This document shows, in pieces, positions 1 to 5,177 of a stretch of 5,177 bases of DNA. The notes beneath the pieces were generated by a model. It was given only the letters and a program-made list of their open reading frames with translations, was not told where the DNA came from and did no database searches. This DNA is from an uncultured Woeseiaceae bacterium (GTDB lineage Bacteria; Pseudomonadota; Gammaproteobacteria; Woeseiales; Woeseiaceae): positions 1 to 5,177 of the forward strand of contig CAMYMP010000229.1 of assembly GCA_947259435.1 (NCBI GenBank). Reading direction: 5' to 3'. The position numbers were made by a program, and so were the translations under genes. The number at the start of each line of letters is the position of its first letter. Position 1 is the first letter of the stretch.

Positions 1-780
1 GTCTCCGGGATTGAGGTTCGGCCGGCGCTCCACCAGCGTTGAGCCACTCAGGAAGAAGACAACGGTGTCGAACCAATCCTCATCCGTTGTGCCATCTTCA
101 TCGTCATCGTGGCTGTTGTCTTCATCGATGTTGCCATCCCCGTCATCGTCAAAACCGGCGATGCCCGATGCGCCGTCGCCGTTACTGTCCCTGTCGGGGT
201 CTTCGTCAACGGAACCGTCGGCATCGTTGTCGATGCCGTCGAGGGGATCCTCTTTGTCCTGGCCATCCTCATCGTCATCGTTGTTGCTCCCCTCATCGAC
301 GTCGCCATCGCCATTATCGTCAATTCCATTTACGCCGGGTTTGCCGTCATCGTTATCGTCATCACCAGGATCCTCGTCCACCCGCCCGTCCTTGTCATTG
401 TCGGCGTCCTTGACGCCATCGGCATCGATGTCAAGACTCGGGTCCAGCGTTACCGCCAATACAGCCGTGGCCAAGGTACTGTCACCTTCGGGCGGCGATG
501 CCGGCACCGTCTGTTCGCGTACGTTCTCGCGCCAGTTAGTGTTCGGGTTGTCGGCCAGCGGCAGCATCAGCCGCTCGGTGCCGATCACGGCCGTCACCAT
601 GCGCTGCATCGCGAAGCGCGCGTCGCGGGTCGCATCGTTGCGCATGCCCGCAGCGTCCTGCGACTCGAGCACGTTATTGAGCAGGCCGGACATAGCCGTC
701 AGCAATAGTGCAGCGATCGCCACTGAGACCAACAGCTCAATAAGCGTGAAACCGGAGAGTATGTTGCGGCGGGCAGGCAC
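1..780 (-). CDS. gspJ: Minor pseudopilin GspJ-like, with large Asp-rich insertion (3' end beyond window)
   Basis: Minor pseudopilin thought to sit near the pseudopilus tip in the periplasm. The frame is open for 260 codons from a GTG at 780 to the left edge, with no stop seen. The GTG is the first possible start after the in-frame gspI stop, 9 bp upstream. Residues 1-10 form a short basic leader ending in Gly10, followed by FTLIE (11-15) with the conserved Glu at +5 and a hydrophobic helix to about residue 34: a class III prepilin signal cut by prepilin peptidase. Residues 35-112 resemble the start of a pseudopilin globular domain. Residues 117-235 are extremely acidic (46 Asp and 8 Glu of 119) with repeated DxDxDG loops. 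Residues 237-253 (FDTVVFFLSG...LVERR) look like a beta-strand of the GspJ fold resuming, so the acidic block appears inserted within the domain. J is assigned mainly from gene order; a PilW-type minor pilin is the alternative. Confidence 0.82.
   Translation of the reverse strand, partial: MPARRNILSGFTLIELLVSVAIAALLLTAMSGLLNNVLESQDAAGMRNDATRDARFAMQRMVTAVIGTERLMLPLADNPNTNWRENVREQTVPASPPEGDSTLATAVLAVTLDPSLDIDADGVKDADNDKDGRVDEDPGDDDNDDGKPGVNGIDDNGDGDVDEGSNNDDDEDGQDKEDPLDGIDNDADGSVDEDPDRDSNGDGASGIAGFDDDGDGNIDEDNSHDDDEDGTTDEDWFDTVVFFLSGSTLVERRPNLNPGD
61..402 (-). repeat. Two tandem copies of a 171-bp (57-codon) Asp-rich calcium-loop unit inside gspJ
   Basis: Copy 1 is residues 127-183 (232-402) and copy 2 is residues 184-240 (61-231). 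Aligned at an offset of exactly 57 residues with no gaps, 127-178 and 184-235 share 31 of 52 residues by hand count. Shared landmarks are DND.DG.VDEDP at the start, a Gly-rich spacer, DD.GDG..DE, and DDDEDG. The codons differ at many synonymous sites, so the duplication is not recent. The DxDxDG loops resemble EF-hand-like or thrombospondin type 3 calcium-binding loops. Calcium binding is inferred from the motif only. Confidence 0.8.
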
Positions 781-789
781 GTCAGCGAC

Positions 790-1260
790 TCACGGTGCGG
801 AGAGGCTTTCGAGCGACGTGACCGAACCTTCGACGTCGACGCGCACCCAAAGCAGGCCCGTATAGCCTGTAAAAGGATTGTTGTCGCCGTCCAAATTCTT
901 GTCCTGGATGGTGAACAGGTTGCCGTCGCTGTCCTCGTTGTCAGCGTCATAAAGTGCGAGATAGACAAGGCACCGGTTTGGCGACCCGGGCGCATCGGAG
1001 TAACTGCTCGGCATATTCTTGTTACCCGCGGCGGCCGCCGCCGTGATTAGCGACGACTGCGGCTCGGCGAGGACCTCTTCCATCTTCGCGAGCGCCGTGT
1101 AATGCTCTGCTGATGTCGATGTATAGACATCACTGCCGTGCATGCCCGTGTAAAGAGCATTCATCGCCGGAACTAACGCGAGCGCAATCAGCACGGTCGC
1201 GATCATGACTTCGATGTAAGTCAGGCCCGACTGACGTTTGTTAGAGGATGGCCGATTCAC
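790..1260 (-). CDS. gspI: Minor pseudopilin GspI-like
   Basis: Minor pseudopilin of 156 residues. In characterised T2SSs, GspI forms the tip complex with GspJ and GspK. The start is a GTG whose last two bases belong to the gspH stop codon (GTGA, 4-bp overlap), implying translational coupling. The leader ends at Gly12, followed by LTYIE (13-17) with Glu at +5 and a hydrophobic helix to about residue 32. Leu at +1 instead of the usual Phe is mildly unusual. Residues 56-68 (ALAKMEEVLAEPQ) match the conserved helix of the GspI/PilV family. Residues 105-128 form an acidic segment (DADNEDSDGN and DKNLDGDNN), which helps make it longer than the roughly 120-130 residues usual for GspI. The C-terminus (LLWVRVDVEG) resembles the terminal beta-strands of the family. 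Assignment to I rather than a PilV-type protein rests partly on position. Confidence 0.82.
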   Translation of the reverse strand: MNRPSSNKRQSGLTYIEVMIATVLIALALVPAMNALYTGMHGSDVYTSTSAEHYTALAKMEEVLAEPQSSLITAAAAAGNKNMPSSYSDAPGSPNRCLVYLALYDADNEDSDGNLFTIQDKNLDGDNNPFTGYTGLLWVRVDVEGSVTSLESLSAP

Positions 1261-1814
1261 TGGATCGTTACCCGCCCGGTCATCGGCGAAACACTTACAA
1301 ATCGCTGCTGGCCCTCATAGCTCAGCTCAACGGTGCCGTCCGTGAGCAATTTCCTGACGGGGTCTGCGCCAACCATCCATATTGGCGTGCCGTTGGGATC
1401 GAATATCACGCTTCGACGCCGACCCGCATCTTCGTAGGCGAAGACATCAATGTTGTTGCTGATCGTCACACCTTGCGTGCCGCTACTCGTATTGACGTTG
1501 AAAACATAGGGTTGCTTGCTGATCGGATGCGTCAGCGTGGAAAGCGTGATCAACGGGACGACGCTGATATCGTATTTTTTGACCGTCACCGTTTGCGTAA
1601 CGTGGCTGACCGTGAGTCCGTGACCTTCGCCGGTCCGAATCGCCTCGCTCCTGGCGAAGCGAAAAGCGCTCGCAACGGCCGCCGCGGCGCGATCCAGCCG
1701 GACTTCGTCATTGCCGTTGTTAGCAGGAATCGCCAGCGCGGCGATCAGCCCGAGCAGCCCGATGACGAGCAGCATTTCGATCAAGGTGTAGCCTTGTGCC
1801 TGCCGTACCTTCAT
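1257..1814 (-). CDS. gspH: Minor pseudopilin GspH-like (GspH/FimT family)
   Basis: Minor pseudopilin of 185 residues that would link the tip complex to the GspG shaft. I chose the ATG at 1814 because GGAGA (1822-1826) lies 7 nt upstream. An in-frame TTG at 1832 would add six residues but lies upstream of that Shine-Dalgarno sequence and inside a hairpin arm. The leader MKVRQAQG is cut after Gly8. YTLIE (9-13) carries the +5 Glu, and a hydrophobic helix runs to about residue 29 (IGLLGLIAALAIPA). Residues 40-62 (AAAAVASAFRFARSEAIRTGEG) are the characteristic GspH/FimT helix. The C-terminus (RFVSVSPMTGRVTIQ) is the usual ending of this family. It overlaps the gspI start by 4 bp. It is separated from gspG by 84 bp holding a large inverted repeat, so its expression may be set apart from gspG. 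Confidence 0.88.
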   Translation of the reverse strand: MKVRQAQGYTLIEMLLVIGLLGLIAALAIPANNGNDEVRLDRAAAAVASAFRFARSEAIRTGEGHGLTVSHVTQTVTVKKYDISVVPLITLSTLTHPISKQPYVFNVNTSSGTQGVTISNNIDVFAYEDAGRRRSVIFDPNGTPIWMVGADPVRKLLTDGTVELSYEGQQRFVSVSPMTGRVTIQ

Positions 1815-1821
1815 CGTGCCG

Positions 1822-1826
1822 TCTCC
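1822..1826 (-). promoter_or_regulatory. Ribosome binding site of gspH
   Basis: GGAGA on the minus strand, 7 nt before the ATG at 1814. It decides the start in favour of this ATG over the in-frame TTG at 1832. It begins 5 nt downstream, in transcription order, of the inverted repeat 1832-1887, so the folded mRNA could influence access to it. Confidence 0.65.
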
Positions 1827-1831
1827 ACGCA

Positions 1832-1887
1832 AATGGGGACATTCCTAATTTAATGTACTAGTACGCTAAATCGGGAATGTCCCCATT
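1832..1887. repeat. 56-bp inverted repeat with perfect 14-bp arms (REP/MITE-like) between gspG and gspH
   Basis: The outer arms AATGGGGACATTCC (1832-1845) and GGAATGTCCCCATT (1874-1887) are exact reverse complements. Inside, 1848-1852 pairs with 1867-1871, and the centre GTAC-TA-GTAC (1855-1864) is self-complementary. In total, 23 of 28 opposed positions are Watson-Crick around a centre between 1859 and 1860. The interior is more AT-rich than its surroundings. There is no transposase in the window and no target duplication I can identify. It resembles repetitive extragenic palindromes or small non-autonomous elements. It could also act as an mRNA-stabilising hairpin 3' of gspG. It lacks the T-tract expected of an intrinsic terminator in the gspG direction. 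Confidence 0.85.
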
Positions 1888-1898
1888 GTTGGTTGAGA

Positions 1899-2417
1899 TT
1901 ATTCGTCGCCGATGAATTCACCGGTGACCGAGTCGAAACGCCAGCCGTCCGTGCCCGCGCTGGCCAGCCCGAGAATGCCGGTCGTGACTACGGTAACCGT
2001 GTTGTTCGGGACTCCTCCAAGCGGGTTATCCGGCAGGTCGTCCTTGAGGTACGGACCGTACCTGAACGTCGTATCCGTGCCCGTGCAAGCTACCCCCGCT
2101 GCGTTGGTGTAGTTCCGGAGCTGCGCGAGAAATGCCGGTTCGCCGACCGCGCCAACCACGTTCGTGGAGCCGGCAGGACAACCTGCGCCTGTCGAGACCA
2201 CGGCACCCGGGTATTCCCCGTGCTGTTGACGGTACAAGTCGATCGCAGATCGAATATTGGCTATGTTCGTGTCATAGGCCGACTGCGTCGCATCATCCGT
2301 GGCAGCCGTGAACTGCGGGACAATGATCGCCGCAAGAATCGCCAGAATGATCACGACGATCAGCAACTCAACCAGTGTAAAGCCTCGTTGGACCATATTT
2401 TTTTCCAGCGAAATCAT
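1899..2417 (-). CDS. gspG: Major pseudopilin GspG-like (divergent)
   Basis: Predicted shaft subunit of the pseudopilus, 172 residues. The ATG at 2417 has GAAGAGG ending 8 nt upstream. An internal ATG at 2396 (Met8) is possible but has a poorer site. The leader MISLEKNMVQRG is cut after Gly12. FTLVE (13-17) carries the +5 Glu, and the hydrophobic helix runs to about residue 36 (IIVPQF). Residues 45-70 (QSAYDTNIANIRSAIDLYRQQHGEYP) are the typical GspG/type IV pilin alpha-1 continuation. GPYLKDDLPDNPLGG (121-135) corresponds to the GspG segment usually written GPYL..P.DPWG, but lacks the Trp. GTDGWRFD near the C-terminus fits the last strands. It differs from textbook GspG in being longer and having two cysteines (80 and 111), which might pair in the periplasm. 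A type IV-like major pilin is the alternative. Confidence 0.8.
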   Translation of the reverse strand: MISLEKNMVQRGFTLVELLIVVIILAILAAIIVPQFTAATDDATQSAYDTNIANIRSAIDLYRQQHGEYPGAVVSTGAGCPAGSTNVVGAVGEPAFLAQLRNYTNAAGVACTGTDTTFRYGPYLKDDLPDNPLGGVPNNTVTVVTTGILGLASAGTDGWRFDSVTGEFIGDE

Positions 2418-2529: not shown

Positions 2530-3657
2530 CTAAGACACAGCGTGCGAGAGCTTGAAAATCGGCAGAATCAGGGAGCTAACGAGCACGCCGACGACGACAC
2601 CCATGACCAGCAGCATGATCGGCTCGGCGAGTTTCGACAGTCTGTCGAGCTGCTTGGTCAGCTGGGTTTCATAATAGTCGGCGATACGTCCCATAACCTT
2701 GCCCAGGTTGCCGGTCTGCTCGCCTGTCGCAATCATGTGCTTGGCGAGGTCGGGCACGAAGTCGGCCTCGGCAAATCCTGCGGCGACGCCTGCGCCCGAT
2801 TGCACTTTTGCCGCGATATTTGAAATCAGGTTTCTGAAAATCGAATTCCTCACGACGTCGCGGCACGCATCGAGGCTGTCCATGACCGATACGCCGTTGA
2901 CCAGGGACAGGCTCAATACTTGCAAAGACTGCACGAGGTAGATTTGGATAAATACGTCGCGGATGCCTGCAAGATGCAACTGCAGATAATCGATGCGAGC
3001 GCGGCCTCTGTCGCTGGTCACCCACTGGCGAAGTGCAACGCCTGTCACGCCGATCCCTGCGAGCACCAGCCACCAGTATTGCCGCAGCATGTCGCTGATC
3101 GACATGAGCGCTTTCGTCGTTACCGGCAGCTGGTCATAAATAGAGTTGAACAACGTGCCGAACTTGGGAAACACGACGACCAGCACGAAAACGACCACGG
3201 CCAGCGAAAAGGCAATCAGGAAAGCCGGGTAGGTTGCGGCGGAGATGAGCGTGTTGCGCAGCTCCTCGCGCTTTTTATCCATATCGAGCAATTGCAGCAA
3301 GACCTCGTGCATGAATCCACCGGCCTCGCTCGCACCGATCAGGTTGACATAGGTGGAGGAAAACACGGTGTCGTGATTCGCGAGCGCGAAACCGAATGAC
3401 TGGCCTTCACTGATATCCTGCGCTACCTGCTCGACAATCTTGCGCATATGCGGATTCTCGGTCTGTTTGACGATCGTCGTCAGCGCGCCGTAGAGGCTTT
3501 CACCGGTCTCCAGCAACAGCGCCAGCTGCTCGGTAAAGAACATTCGGTCGGTCGTCCCGGCCGTGCGCGACTGTCCTGGAAGCTGGAATTCGAAGCCGCC
3601 GCCGACCTTTTTCTCGACCGGGTCTTTGACCGGAGCTGTATCGATCTGCAGTGCCAT
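2530..3657 (-). CDS. gspF: T2SS inner-membrane platform protein GspF
   Basis: Polytopic inner-membrane platform of the T2SS/type IV pilus family. It contacts the GspE ATPase and handles pseudopilins. 375 residues; ATG at 3657, preceded by AGGCGG that partly overlaps the upstream stop codon. The first T2SSF domain is about 38-161, opening with MFFTEQLALLLETGESLYGAL and including GASEAGGF (108-115). The second is about 240-364, with the family motif TGEQTGNLGKVMGRIADYYE (311-330) and then LAEPIMLLVMG. Predicted membrane segments are about 144-163, 194-209 and 346-367. It ends in LPIFKLSHAV, close to the usual family end. The N-terminal part before the first domain is short and lacks the Y.A.d..G opening common in GspF, which explains the below-average length. 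It starts 9 bp after the end of the gspE remainder, so the two are probably co-transcribed and coupled. Confidence 0.93.
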   Translation of the reverse strand: MALQIDTAPVKDPVEKKVGGGFEFQLPGQSRTAGTTDRMFFTEQLALLLETGESLYGALTTIVKQTENPHMRKIVEQVAQDISEGQSFGFALANHDTVFSSTYVNLIGASEAGGFMHEVLLQLLDMDKKREELRNTLISAATYPAFLIAFSLAVVVFVLVVVFPKFGTLFNSIYDQLPVTTKALMSISDMLRQYWWLVLAGIGVTGVALRQWVTSDRGRARIDYLQLHLAGIRDVFIQIYLVQSLQVLSLSLVNGVSVMDSLDACRDVVRNSIFRNLISNIAAKVQSGAGVAAGFAEADFVPDLAKHMIATGEQTGNLGKVMGRIADYYETQLTKQLDRLSKLAEPIMLLVMGVVVGVLVSSLILPIFKLSHAVS

Positions 3658-3666
3658 TTCAGCCGC

Positions 3667-3855
3667 CTATATGCTCGTCACGCGAGAGACTTCCTCGAGC
3701 GTCGTGCGCCGCTCCAGCACGCGGGCGAGGCCGTCCTCAAACAGATTGCGAAAGCCGCGCCCGTGGAGGTAGTCGCTTAGTTCATCGCGACTCGGACTCG
3801 AGATGATCAGTTTTTGCAGGTCCGGGTCCGTCTTCAAGATTTCGTGGATGCCCAT
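3667..3855 (-). pseudogene. gspE: C-terminal remainder of gspE, out of frame with the main part
   Basis: 62 residues from an internal ATG. They match the extreme C-terminus of GspE/PilB ATPases: GIHEIL, a conserved helical stretch (DPDLQKLIISS), then NLFEDGLARVLERRTTLEEVSRVT, which is the usual family ending. It is read one frame away from the upstream gspE and overlaps its premature end (3834-3855). In intact relatives, GIHEIL follows directly on a GC..C..TGY.GR sequence. Here only an Arg codon (3856-3858) of that motif is present, and the frame further upstream encodes nothing family-like before a stop at 3898-3900. No Shine-Dalgarno near the ATG argues for independent translation. I read this as the displaced tail of a broken gene or a sequence error, not a separate small gene. 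Confidence 0.8.
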
Positions 3856-5177
3856 GCGGAGCCGAACTGCTCGACGATCTCGAGCGGTGCAAGAAAATCA
3901 GATTGGCAGCTCGGGCAGATCGTCCGTACAAGGCGCTGACCCACGACGCCGAGCAGTGCTGACGACAATAAGTAAGGCTCGACACCCATGTCGATGAGCC
4001 GTGTGACTGCACCGACAGCATCGTTGGTGTGCAAAGTCGAGAGGACGAGATGACCCGTGAGTGCGGCCTGCACCGCGATCTCGGCGGTCTCGCGCTCACG
4101 AATCTCGCCAACCATGACGATGTCCGGGTCCTGGCGCAGCACATGCTTGAGGATCTTGGCGAACGTCAGACCGATGCCGCCACGAACCTCGTTCTGATTG
4201 ATAATGTCGAGCTGATACTCCACGGGATCTTCGATCGTGACGAGGTTCTTTTCGATGCTCTTGATATGATTTAGGGCCGCGTAAAGGCTGGTCGTCTTGC
4301 CGCTGCCCGTCGGTCCGGTCACGAGAATCAAGCCGTGGCTGGAATCCAGCAACTGCTTGAATATCATGAGGTTCTCGTCACACATGTTGAGCTTGTTGAC
4401 GTCGAGGATCGCCTGGTTCTTGTCGAGAATACGGAGTACGACTTTCTCGCCGTATAGTCCCGGCAAGGAACTGAATCGCAGGTCAATCGAGCGGCCCTGT
4501 GTCTGAACCTGGATGCGCCCATCCTGCGGCATACGCCTCTCGGCGATATCGAGATTCGCCATGACTTTTAGTCGTGATACGAGCGCTGGATGCAGCTCGA
4601 CGCGCGGCGCCGTGAATTCATACAGCAGGCCGTCGATACGAAAGCGGATGCGTGAGTGCGTGCGGAATGGCTCGAGGTGGATGTCACTCGCGCCGTCGCG
4701 GACGGCGCGCTGAATAATTGAATTGACGAGGTTGACGACGGGGCTGCCGGCCGCCACCTCGTCGATCGCAGAGTAATCGTCGATCTGCAAATTTTCGACG
4801 ACGGCAAAGTCTTCATCGACATCGCCCACCATGTCGAATTGCATATCGTCGATATCGACCGACTCGTTGAGCAGCTTGAGAATGTCTTCCTTGCGGGCCA
4901 GCACGGGTTTAACGACGCACTGCAGACGTTCAGAGACTTCCTCGATCGTCGGCATATCCTGCGGCTTTGCGGTTGCGAGATACAGGGAGCTCCGAACGCG
5001 GAACAGTGGCATTACGCACAGACGCCGCGCGACGTTGCTGTCCAGAAGCGCCGCTGCCACCGGATCGAAAAGTCCAGGCCGCACCCTCACGAACGGCACG
5101 CCCAGCTGTTCGCCGAGGGCCCGTAGCACATCGTTCTCAGCAACCCAGCCCTTGTCGATAATGATCTGGCCCATGCG
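3834..5177 (-). CDS. gspE: T2SS assembly ATPase GspE, 5' end cut by window edge, 3' end frameshifted
   Basis: Cytoplasmic hexameric ATPase that powers pseudopilus assembly through GspF. Residues are counted from the Met at 5174, which is probably internal: with the preceding Arg (5175-5177) it forms the RMG of an N-terminal MshEN/T2SSE_N half-motif ending at Gln23. The true start therefore lies beyond the window. An acidic linker (107-139) precedes the N2 domain (about 143-250: VRDGASDIHLEPF, then RFRIDG). The C1 domain has Walker A GPTGSGKT (287-294), Asp box VTIEDPVEY (312-320), Walker B region RQDPDIVMVGEIRE (347-360) and His box TGHLVLSTLHTNDA (373-386). Only the first pair of the tetracysteine zinc motif is seen, CPSC (420-423). 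After FGSA (440) the frame runs into six unrelated residues and a TGA. The family C-terminus resumes in another frame at about 3858. Catalytic motifs are intact, but product function is uncertain. Confidence 0.9.
   Translation of the reverse strand, partial: RMGQIIIDKGWVAENDVLRALGEQLGVPFVRVRPGLFDPVAAALLDSNVARRLCVMPLFRVRSSLYLATAKPQDMPTIEEVSERLQCVVKPVLARKEDILKLLNESVDIDDMQFDMVGDVDEDFAVVENLQIDDYSAIDEVAAGSPVVNLVNSIIQRAVRDGASDIHLEPFRTHSRIRFRIDGLLYEFTAPRVELHPALVSRLKVMANLDIAERRMPQDGRIQVQTQGRSIDLRFSSLPGLYGEKVVLRILDKNQAILDVNKLNMCDENLMIFKQLLDSSHGLILVTGPTGSGKTTSLYAALNHIKSIEKNLVTIEDPVEYQLDIINQNEVRGGIGLTFAKILKHVLRQDPDIVMVGEIRERETAEIAVQAALTGHLVLSTLHTNDAVGAVTRLIDMGVEPYLLSSALLGVVGQRLVRTICPSCQSDFLAPLEIVEQFGSAWASTKS

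What the first reader, a model, noticed from the sequence alone, without database searches (positions are those of the whole stretch)
61..432. GspJ-like pseudopilin with a 119-residue Asp-rich insertion made of a duplicated 57-residue calcium-loop-like unit
Residues 117-235 contain 46 Asp and 8 Glu with only 6 Lys/Arg, and the DxDxDG loops recur. Two 57-residue units align gap-free (31/52 identical). The prepilin N-terminus precedes it and a GspJ-like strand (FDTVVFFLSG...LVERR) follows it. Calcium sites are known in GspG and GspK, but a long repeated acidic array inside the J position is not something I recognise as standard. Inference: it may bind several calcium ions and give a calcium-gated or rigid tip extension that contacts substrate or the secretin. 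A cation- or mineral-contacting role is another possibility.
Basis: partly seen in the sequence, partly recalled or inferred. Interest (0 to 1): 0.72.

Follow-up and report, generated by a model that had tools for sequence, protein, structure and literature searches.

The report
Calcium-type repeat inside pilus-tip protein
A minor pilus protein of an apparently undescribed bacterial surface-filament machine carries a conserved, duplicated aspartate-rich block that most likely folds around calcium near the filament tip, beside a partner with a predicted sugar-binding domain; the block is usual in its own family but was not seen in the few ordinary pilin loci checked.

Summary
Residues 117-235 of the minus-strand gene (window 432-76) hold 46 Asp and 8 Glu; two 57-residue units match at 31 of 57 positions, and the best 50-residue self-match beats all 500 shuffles. 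The block is no private oddity: all 250 aligned relatives (found by similarity to array-bearing queries) carry it, five with one unit, 245 with a longer block. Asp is kept in 94% of cells at loop positions. A full-length relative folds with high confidence (pLDDT 89.7) as a GspJ-type minor pilin (best PDB matches XcpW, EpsJ) with an ordered, loop-only insert. Calcium itself was neither modelled nor measured.

The gene is not canonical T2SS GspJ: curated models fail. Related loci show an operon of kinase, regulator, GGDEF/EAL, STAS-MshEN-ATPase, F, G, H, I, J, large K, PilM-N-O-P and secretin. Its ATPase forms a clade apart from GspE and PilB enzymes of the same genomes. Each K scanned (12 of 14 loci) carries CBM96.

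Best explanation: a calcium-stabilised module of the I-J-K tip that braces or positions K's glycan-binding head. New variant of a known kind; calcium and gating are inference.

The parts
1..780 (-). J-type minor pilin gene, 260 codons in the window, 3' end (about 60 codons by comparison with relatives) beyond the window
   Evidence: ORF; N_methyl; 42 relatives aligned at 57-76% identity; GspJ fold for 75%-identical relative P0001
748..753 (-). inferred prepilin peptidase cleavage point between G10 and F11 (FTLIE)
   Evidence: sequence; N_methyl hit residues 9-30
580..744 (-). long N-terminal pilin helix, residues 13-67
   Evidence: AlphaFold2 secondary structure
76..432 (-). Asp-rich insert, residues 117-235
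   Evidence: 46 D, 8 E of 119; present in 250 aligned relatives; ordered in the model of P0001
397..432 (-). leading loop DIDADGVKDADN (residue 117)
   Evidence: [DN]x[DNST]x[DNS] at this place in 250 of 250 rows
247..417 (-). unit 1, residues 122-178, four loops starting at 127, 141, 154, 168
76..246 (-). unit 2, residues 179-235, four loops starting at 184, 198, 211, 225
   Evidence: 31 of 57 identical to unit 1
25..75 (-). pilin beta-strands after the insert (WFDTVVFFLSGSTLVER)
   Evidence: strands in models
790..1260 (-). I-type minor pilin
   Evidence: alignment A3 with 13 I proteins of related loci
865..951 (-). acidic loop of the I protein (YDADNEDSDGNLF...DKNLDGDNNPFTG)
   Evidence: Y104, D105, D110 invariant and D107, N108, D112 at 90% or more in 14 aligned I proteins
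1257..1832 (-). H-type pseudopilin
   Evidence: Pfam GspH 27.5 bits, cut-off 21
1899..2417 (-). G-type major pilin
   Evidence: Pfam T2SSG 22.0 bits, cut-off 21; TIGR01710 58.8 bits, below its cut-off 88.85
2530..3657 (-). inner-membrane platform protein F
   Evidence: ORF; counterpart in 12 of the 14 related loci, (L002 and L030 lack it in the stretch read)
3667..5174 (-). assembly ATPase E, reading frame broken near 3834-3855
   Evidence: longer piece lies in the operon's ATPase clade

Best explanation
The block is a folded, multi-ion calcium-binding module (about nine Dx[DN]xDG-type loops: one leading loop plus two units of four) built into a surface loop of the J-type minor pilin of a separate, apparently undescribed type IV filament system. 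Shown here: J fold of a close relative, fixed insertion place, strong Asp conservation in loop pattern, one- or two-unit copy number, neighbours I (with its own acidic loop) and K (a pilin-like protein joined to a CBM96 domain and a variable tail). Inferred: the module takes up calcium outside the cytoplasm, which turns a chain of about -46 net charge (family median) into a rigid element of the I-J-K tip and so braces or positions K's glycan-binding head when the tip is exposed. A true on/off gate is possible but less likely than a permanent structural role.
Against: No ion was modelled or measured. Asp-to-Glu change is rare throughout the insert, not only at loop positions (1.2% against 0.5%), so that contrast is modest. 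Loops 141 and 172 (P0001 numbering) fit the pattern in only 182 and 145 of 250 rows. No known calcium-repeat family matches; PDB sequence matches are weak (best E 0.015, a geopilin N-terminus, and calmodulins from 0.019; 0.56). XcpW is reported to make no solid contact with XcpX, and the J loop used here was not mapped on XcpW, so contact with K is inference. Calcium-free PilC/PilY1 mutants of other species showed no major piliation effect (PMC4471445 passage). Unit number against K length was not tested statistically.
Confidence: 0.55

Rival explanations
1. Calcium switch: the insert is disordered and self-repelling inside the cell envelope and folds only on exit into calcium-rich water, which gates tip maturation, assembly or retraction, as proposed for PilY1.
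For: Net charge -24 to -58 across 250 rows; PilY1 precedent read as passages; related operons are rich in signalling genes: kinase, regulator, GGDEF/EAL, and STAS and MshEN on the L001 ATPase.
Against: Nothing tested shows reversibility or a threshold; the periplasm is thought to equilibrate with outside calcium (recalled); strict conservation fits a permanent fold as well; the PilY1 effect was not seen in other species.
Confidence: 0.2
2. The acidic surface itself is the point: it binds cations, mineral surfaces or basic polymers, or keeps the tip from sticking to the secretin lumen or LPS.
For: 46 of 119 residues are Asp; Asp is conserved outside the loop positions too (82% of cells).
Against: A charge brush would let D and E swap and spacing drift; D to E is 32 of 6188 cells at loop positions and 56 of 4670 elsewhere, and insert length is 103-127 in 240 of 250 rows.
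Confidence: 0.12
3. Low-complexity expansion without function: a drifting Asp-rich repeat tolerated in a surface loop.
For: Repeat in a loop of a minor pilin; copy number differs (one unit in P0121-P0124 and L025).
Against: Conserved place and pattern in rows down to 34% identity in A2, no DNA-level tandem repeat, third codon positions diverged while protein pattern is kept.
Confidence: 0.03

Closest known systems
T2SS minor pseudopilin GspJ (XcpW, EpsJ)
   Different: Below the TIGR01711 cut-off (26.4, 19.5 and 18.6 of 64.85); carries a 119-residue insert; the pilin ORFs seen in four weak-hit comparison loci L051-L054 have no DxDxDG loop (these ORFs were not typed by a model)
GspK/XcpX calcium sites and PilY1 calcium site
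   Same: Calcium sites in the tip complex of a type IV filament (passages)
   Different: There two or three sites in K, one in PilY1; here about nine loops in J, calcium not shown
Modular pilins (Streptococcus sanguinis PilB/PilC)
   Different: In J the module is inserted within the pilin fold rather than added at its C-terminus
Thrombospondin type 3, dockerin and EF-hand Dx[DN]xDG loops
   Same: Loop motif and repetition (resemblance recalled, plus PMC3123361 passages)
   Different: No Pfam match for the insert at E up to 10; no EF-hand helices in the model; 179 of 250 rows without cysteine
MSHA, T4aP and 'generic' type IV filament systems (Denise et al. 2019, PMC6668835, passages)
   Same: PilM-N-O type assembly proteins, secretin, MshEN-ATPase
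   Different: ATPase and secretin of relatives below the curated cut-offs; ATPase clade of its own

Membership tests
T2SS GspJ | NCBIfam TIGR01711 curated cut-off 64.85 bits | tested here: not met
   26.4 bits (window, truncated), 19.5 and 18.6 bits (full-length P0001, P0005)
T2SS GspJ | GspJ fold | tested here: met
T2SS GspJ | prepilin N-terminal motif | tested here: met
   PF07963 25.4 bits, cut-off 21.2
T2SS | major pseudopilin GspG, TIGR01710 cut-off 88.85 | tested here: not met
   58.8 bits, N-terminal part only (window); L001 53.4. The Pfam T2SSG cut-off of 21 is just met by the window (22.0) and not by L001 (16.8)
T2SS | ATPase GspE, TIGR02533 cut-off 630.25 | tested here: not met
   567.8 (L001) and 582.5 (L025); controls L066 and L069 of L001's genome 674.4 and 636.7. 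The window's own broken copy was not scored
T2SS | secretin GspD, TIGR02517 cut-off 351.35 | tested here: not met
   167.9 bits for L002 secretin
T4aP | ATPase PilB, TIGR02538 cut-off 675.65 | tested here: not met
   554.9 (L001) and 563.2 (L025); control L062 853.7
MSHA pilus | secretin MshL, TIGR02519 cut-off 250.2 | tested here: not met
   146.1 bits for L002 secretin
Calcium-binding Dx[DN]xDG proteins | conserved Dx[DN]xDG-type loops | tested here: met
   Seven of nine places fit [DN]x[DNST]x[DNS] in 191-250 of 250 rows; the other two in 182 and 145
Calcium-binding Dx[DN]xDG proteins | bound calcium | not testable with these tools
   No ions in the predictor; no assay
Thrombospondin type 3, EF-hand or dockerin families | Pfam profile match | tested here: not met
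   0 families for the 119-residue insert and for a 60-residue unit stretch at E up to 10 (HMMER filters may drop weak ones)

The most novel reading that the evidence does not exclude
The window belongs to a distinct, undescribed class of type IV filament of Gammaproteobacteria: a two-component and cyclic-di-GMP-controlled fibre whose tip is a modular K pilin with a CBM96 glycan-binding head locked and sensed by a calcium-loaded array in J, i.e. a calcium-dependent glycan-probing filament.
Probability: 0.3. Interest if true: 0.75.

Novelty: new variant of a known kind. Interest (0 to 1): 0.55.

Why it matters
Calcium at type IV filament tips (GspK, PilY1) is a known but poorly explained theme. 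A J pilin with a conserved array of about nine loops, in an operon with a CBM96-bearing tip-type pilin, gives a self-contained domain on which calcium's role at a filament tip can be tested directly, and points to an unstudied filament system in environmental Gammaproteobacteria.

Tried and rejected
Rejected: chance or low complexity (shuffles; conservation; no DNA tandem repeat). Rejected: a one-off insertion in this gene (250 of 250 aligned relatives have it; they were found by similarity to array-bearing queries, so this is not a census of J pilins). Rejected: canonical T2SS, T4aP or MSHA membership (membership table). Tried without result: Rfam (no match at gathering score); Pfam on the insert; PDB by sequence (a geopilin N-terminus, calmodulins and a calcineurin B at E 0.015 or worse, not evidence); Foldseek with the full model (no E below 0.001). 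The insert was not folded or searched alone. A search scored on the insert alone returned 999 proteins; of the 314 distinct proteins held from three searches (120 best rows each), 303 show a prepilin motif in the first 110 residues and the other 11 look like late-started members, so no non-pilin carrier was seen among the listed rows. Whether the single-unit form is ancestral is open: in the ATPase tree L025 (one unit) branches among poorly resolved early lineages. A cyclic-di-GMP ligand pattern that I wrote matched 0 of 11 ATPases; I think it was too strict and draw nothing from it. The 250 rows hold near-duplicates (for example P0121 and L025).

The search with the I protein is also weaker than it looks: 11 of its 13 strong genomes supplied rows of the query alignment.

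Literature: searches (open-licence PubMed Central only; long hit lists were cut at 10-15 rows) listed no paper on such an insert in GspJ or on this operon. Of the papers I saw only passages of PMC6668835, PMC6211770, PMC8179133, PMC3123361 and PMC4471445, and listings with abstract starts of the others.

Full report
Observation. The window reads, on the minus strand, as an operon E-F-G-H-I-J of a type IV filament system (Pfam and NCBIfam on J, I, H and G). The J gene occupies 780..1 and runs off the window. Its residues 117-235 (window 432..76) contain 46 Asp, 8 Glu, 4 Lys and 2 Arg. The best gap-free self-match is at offset 57 (29 of 50; 500 shuffles: mean 17.4, maximum 23), and two whole units share 31 of 57 residues.

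Relatives. A search of predicted proteins gave 2256 matches, of which the 120 best are listed. In 42 of them aligned with the window protein (A1, 43 rows) the block is present in the rows shown, with invariant Asp and Gly columns over all 43. A second search with a one-unit relative gave 903 matches, 120 listed. I aligned the 236 distinct proteins then held with 14 J proteins read from genome loci: 250 rows, near-duplicates included. All 250 hold the block: 62-63 residues (one unit) in 5 rows (P0121-P0124 and L025), 103-157 residues in 245; in L026 and L028 (112 and 103 residues) the block is shorter than two full units. Because the rows were found by similarity to array-bearing queries, this is not a census. 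At loop positions 1, 3 and 5 the 25 Asp-majority columns hold D in 5835 of 6188 cells, N 133, E 32, S 41, other 147; the 19 other Asp-majority columns of the insert hold D in 3832 of 4670, N 387, E 56, S 45, other 350. Asp is thus better kept at the predicted loop positions, and Glu, which would keep the charge, rarely replaces it in either set. Cysteines occur in even numbers only: 0 in 179 rows, 2 in 60, 4 in 11. Two of the nine places (141 and 172 in P0001 numbering) fit the pattern less well, 182 and 145 of 250 rows.

Genome context. No whole genome is held for the window. Five named loci came from one scan of genome contigs: three Gammaproteobacteria MAGs, a Chromatiales MAG and Crenothrix polyspora; one of the MAG loci (L005) ends before the block. 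Of 369 genomes sampled from the class of L001's genome 12 have the protein (L001's and L003's genomes are among them), and of 398 sampled from the phylum 2 (L001's again counted). The first look of these searches scores few candidates per genome, so misses are possible. Searching the same class sample with the operon's I protein gave 17 of 369 genomes at E up to 1e-8: 13 strong (E up to 5.7e-42), which are the 12 above plus G159, whose hit lies at a contig end so that J cannot be seen; and 4 weak (E 7.6e-10 to 5.2e-9), in whose loci the pilin ORFs printed have no DxDxDG loop (L051-L054). So no copy of the operon without the array was found; but 11 of the 13 strong genomes supplied rows of the I alignment, so this is a weak test of whether such copies exist.

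The gene order over 14 loci (ORFs matched by BLAST to L001 and L002 proteins) is kinase, response regulator, GGDEF-EAL, ATPase, F, G, H, I, J, K, sometimes GGDEF, then PilM, PilN, PilO, PilP-like, secretin. A kinase is seen in 10 of 14 loci; L028 lacks kinase, regulator and GGDEF-EAL although 4.5 kb upstream were read, L027 lacks the GGDEF-EAL gene, L026 is rearranged, and several stretches end within the operon. The L001 ATPase bears STAS and MshEN domains, and its 10 counterparts align to it over 671-692 residues; that MshEN binds cyclic di-GMP is recalled. K is the next matched gene after J in 14 of 14 loci, with gaps of some 260-520 bases in L031, L034 and L035. I scanned 12 of the 14 K proteins: all 12 have CBM96 above its cut-off, three have a Laminin_G_3 domain (L001, L033, L035), L001 also YCF48-type repeats. 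A PilX N-terminus passes its Pfam cut-off in one (L026); the likeness of the others to PilX/GspK rests on the look of their N-termini and on homology to each other. K lengths run from 311 to 1678 residues (L031, L034 and L036 cut by ends). The I proteins have a conserved acidic loop of their own (14 aligned).

Not a canonical system. J and G (window), and the ATPase (L001, L025) and secretin (L002), score under the curated T2SS cut-offs; the ATPase also scores under the PilB one and the secretin under the PilQ and MshL ones, while L001's genome holds separate ATPases above the GspE cut-off (L066, L069) and one above the PilB cut-off (L062). In a tree of 34 ATPase rows the 12 of this operon, the window's included, form one clade (100/99); its place among the others is unresolved (32/0). 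Denise et al. 2019 (PMC6668835; passages) left 884 filament systems as 'generic'; this may be one of those. I did not run their models.

Mechanism. Shown: fold (of P0001), place, conservation, copy number, neighbours. Inferred: calcium. Dx[DN]xDG loops bind calcium in many folds and are mostly outside the cytoplasm (PMC3123361, passages). In the P. aeruginosa tip complex two loops of the J protein XcpW are restrained by the calcium-binding K protein XcpX, though without solid contacts (PMC6211770, passages), so a J loop is a sensible place for a module that braces K. The most economical reading is a calcium-stabilised structural module of the I-J-K tip beneath K's CBM96 head. A switch that reads calcium, as argued for PilY1 and disputed by later mutants (passages), is a weaker rival; a pure charge surface is weaker still because D and E rarely swap and the spacing is kept.

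Novelty. The kind (calcium in filament tips, modules grafted on pilins) is known; an array of about nine loops inside a J pilin, as a regular mark of a separate operon, was not found in the rows listed by ten literature searches of an open-licence library. I therefore file it as a new variant of a known kind.

Noticed in passing
window 3834-3855, minus strand: The ATPase E frame is broken: two ORFs overlap here, and a stretch present in L001's protein is missing; could be a real lesion or an assembly error. Described only.
   Followed up: partly
L001 4904-7141: The operon's ATPase is fused to an N-terminal STAS domain in addition to MshEN, an unusual regulatory head for a filament ATPase.
   Followed up: partly
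L001 612-5087 and counterparts: A kinase, response regulator and GGDEF-EAL gene precede the filament genes in most loci that reach so far, and a further GGDEF gene follows K in L001, L002, L029 and L035.
   Followed up: partly
L001 10954-14595, L033 5138-9610, L035 11671-16704: Large K pilins with CBM96, lectin-like and (L001) YCF48-type domains: likely modular tip adhesins.
   Followed up: partly
window 865-951: The I pilins of this window and 13 related loci share a conserved acidic loop (about YDxDNxDxDxDxFTG), a possible further calcium site.
   Followed up: partly
P0079, L014, L015, L016, L019: Some members carry an additional Asn/Asp stretch ending in roughly RDxGEPERIDED inside the first unit, dockerin-like to the eye.
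   Followed up: no
P0066: A public record names a family member 'MSCRAMM family adhesin SdrC', a likely misnaming caused by the Asp-rich repeat.
   Followed up: no
L002 5827-6492: An ORF resembling REP-associated tyrosine transposases (recalled from its start, not scanned) lies just after K.
   Followed up: no
window 2-865, plus strand: A long Ser-rich open frame on the other strand mirrors the Asp codons and is most likely an artefact of composition.
   Followed up: no
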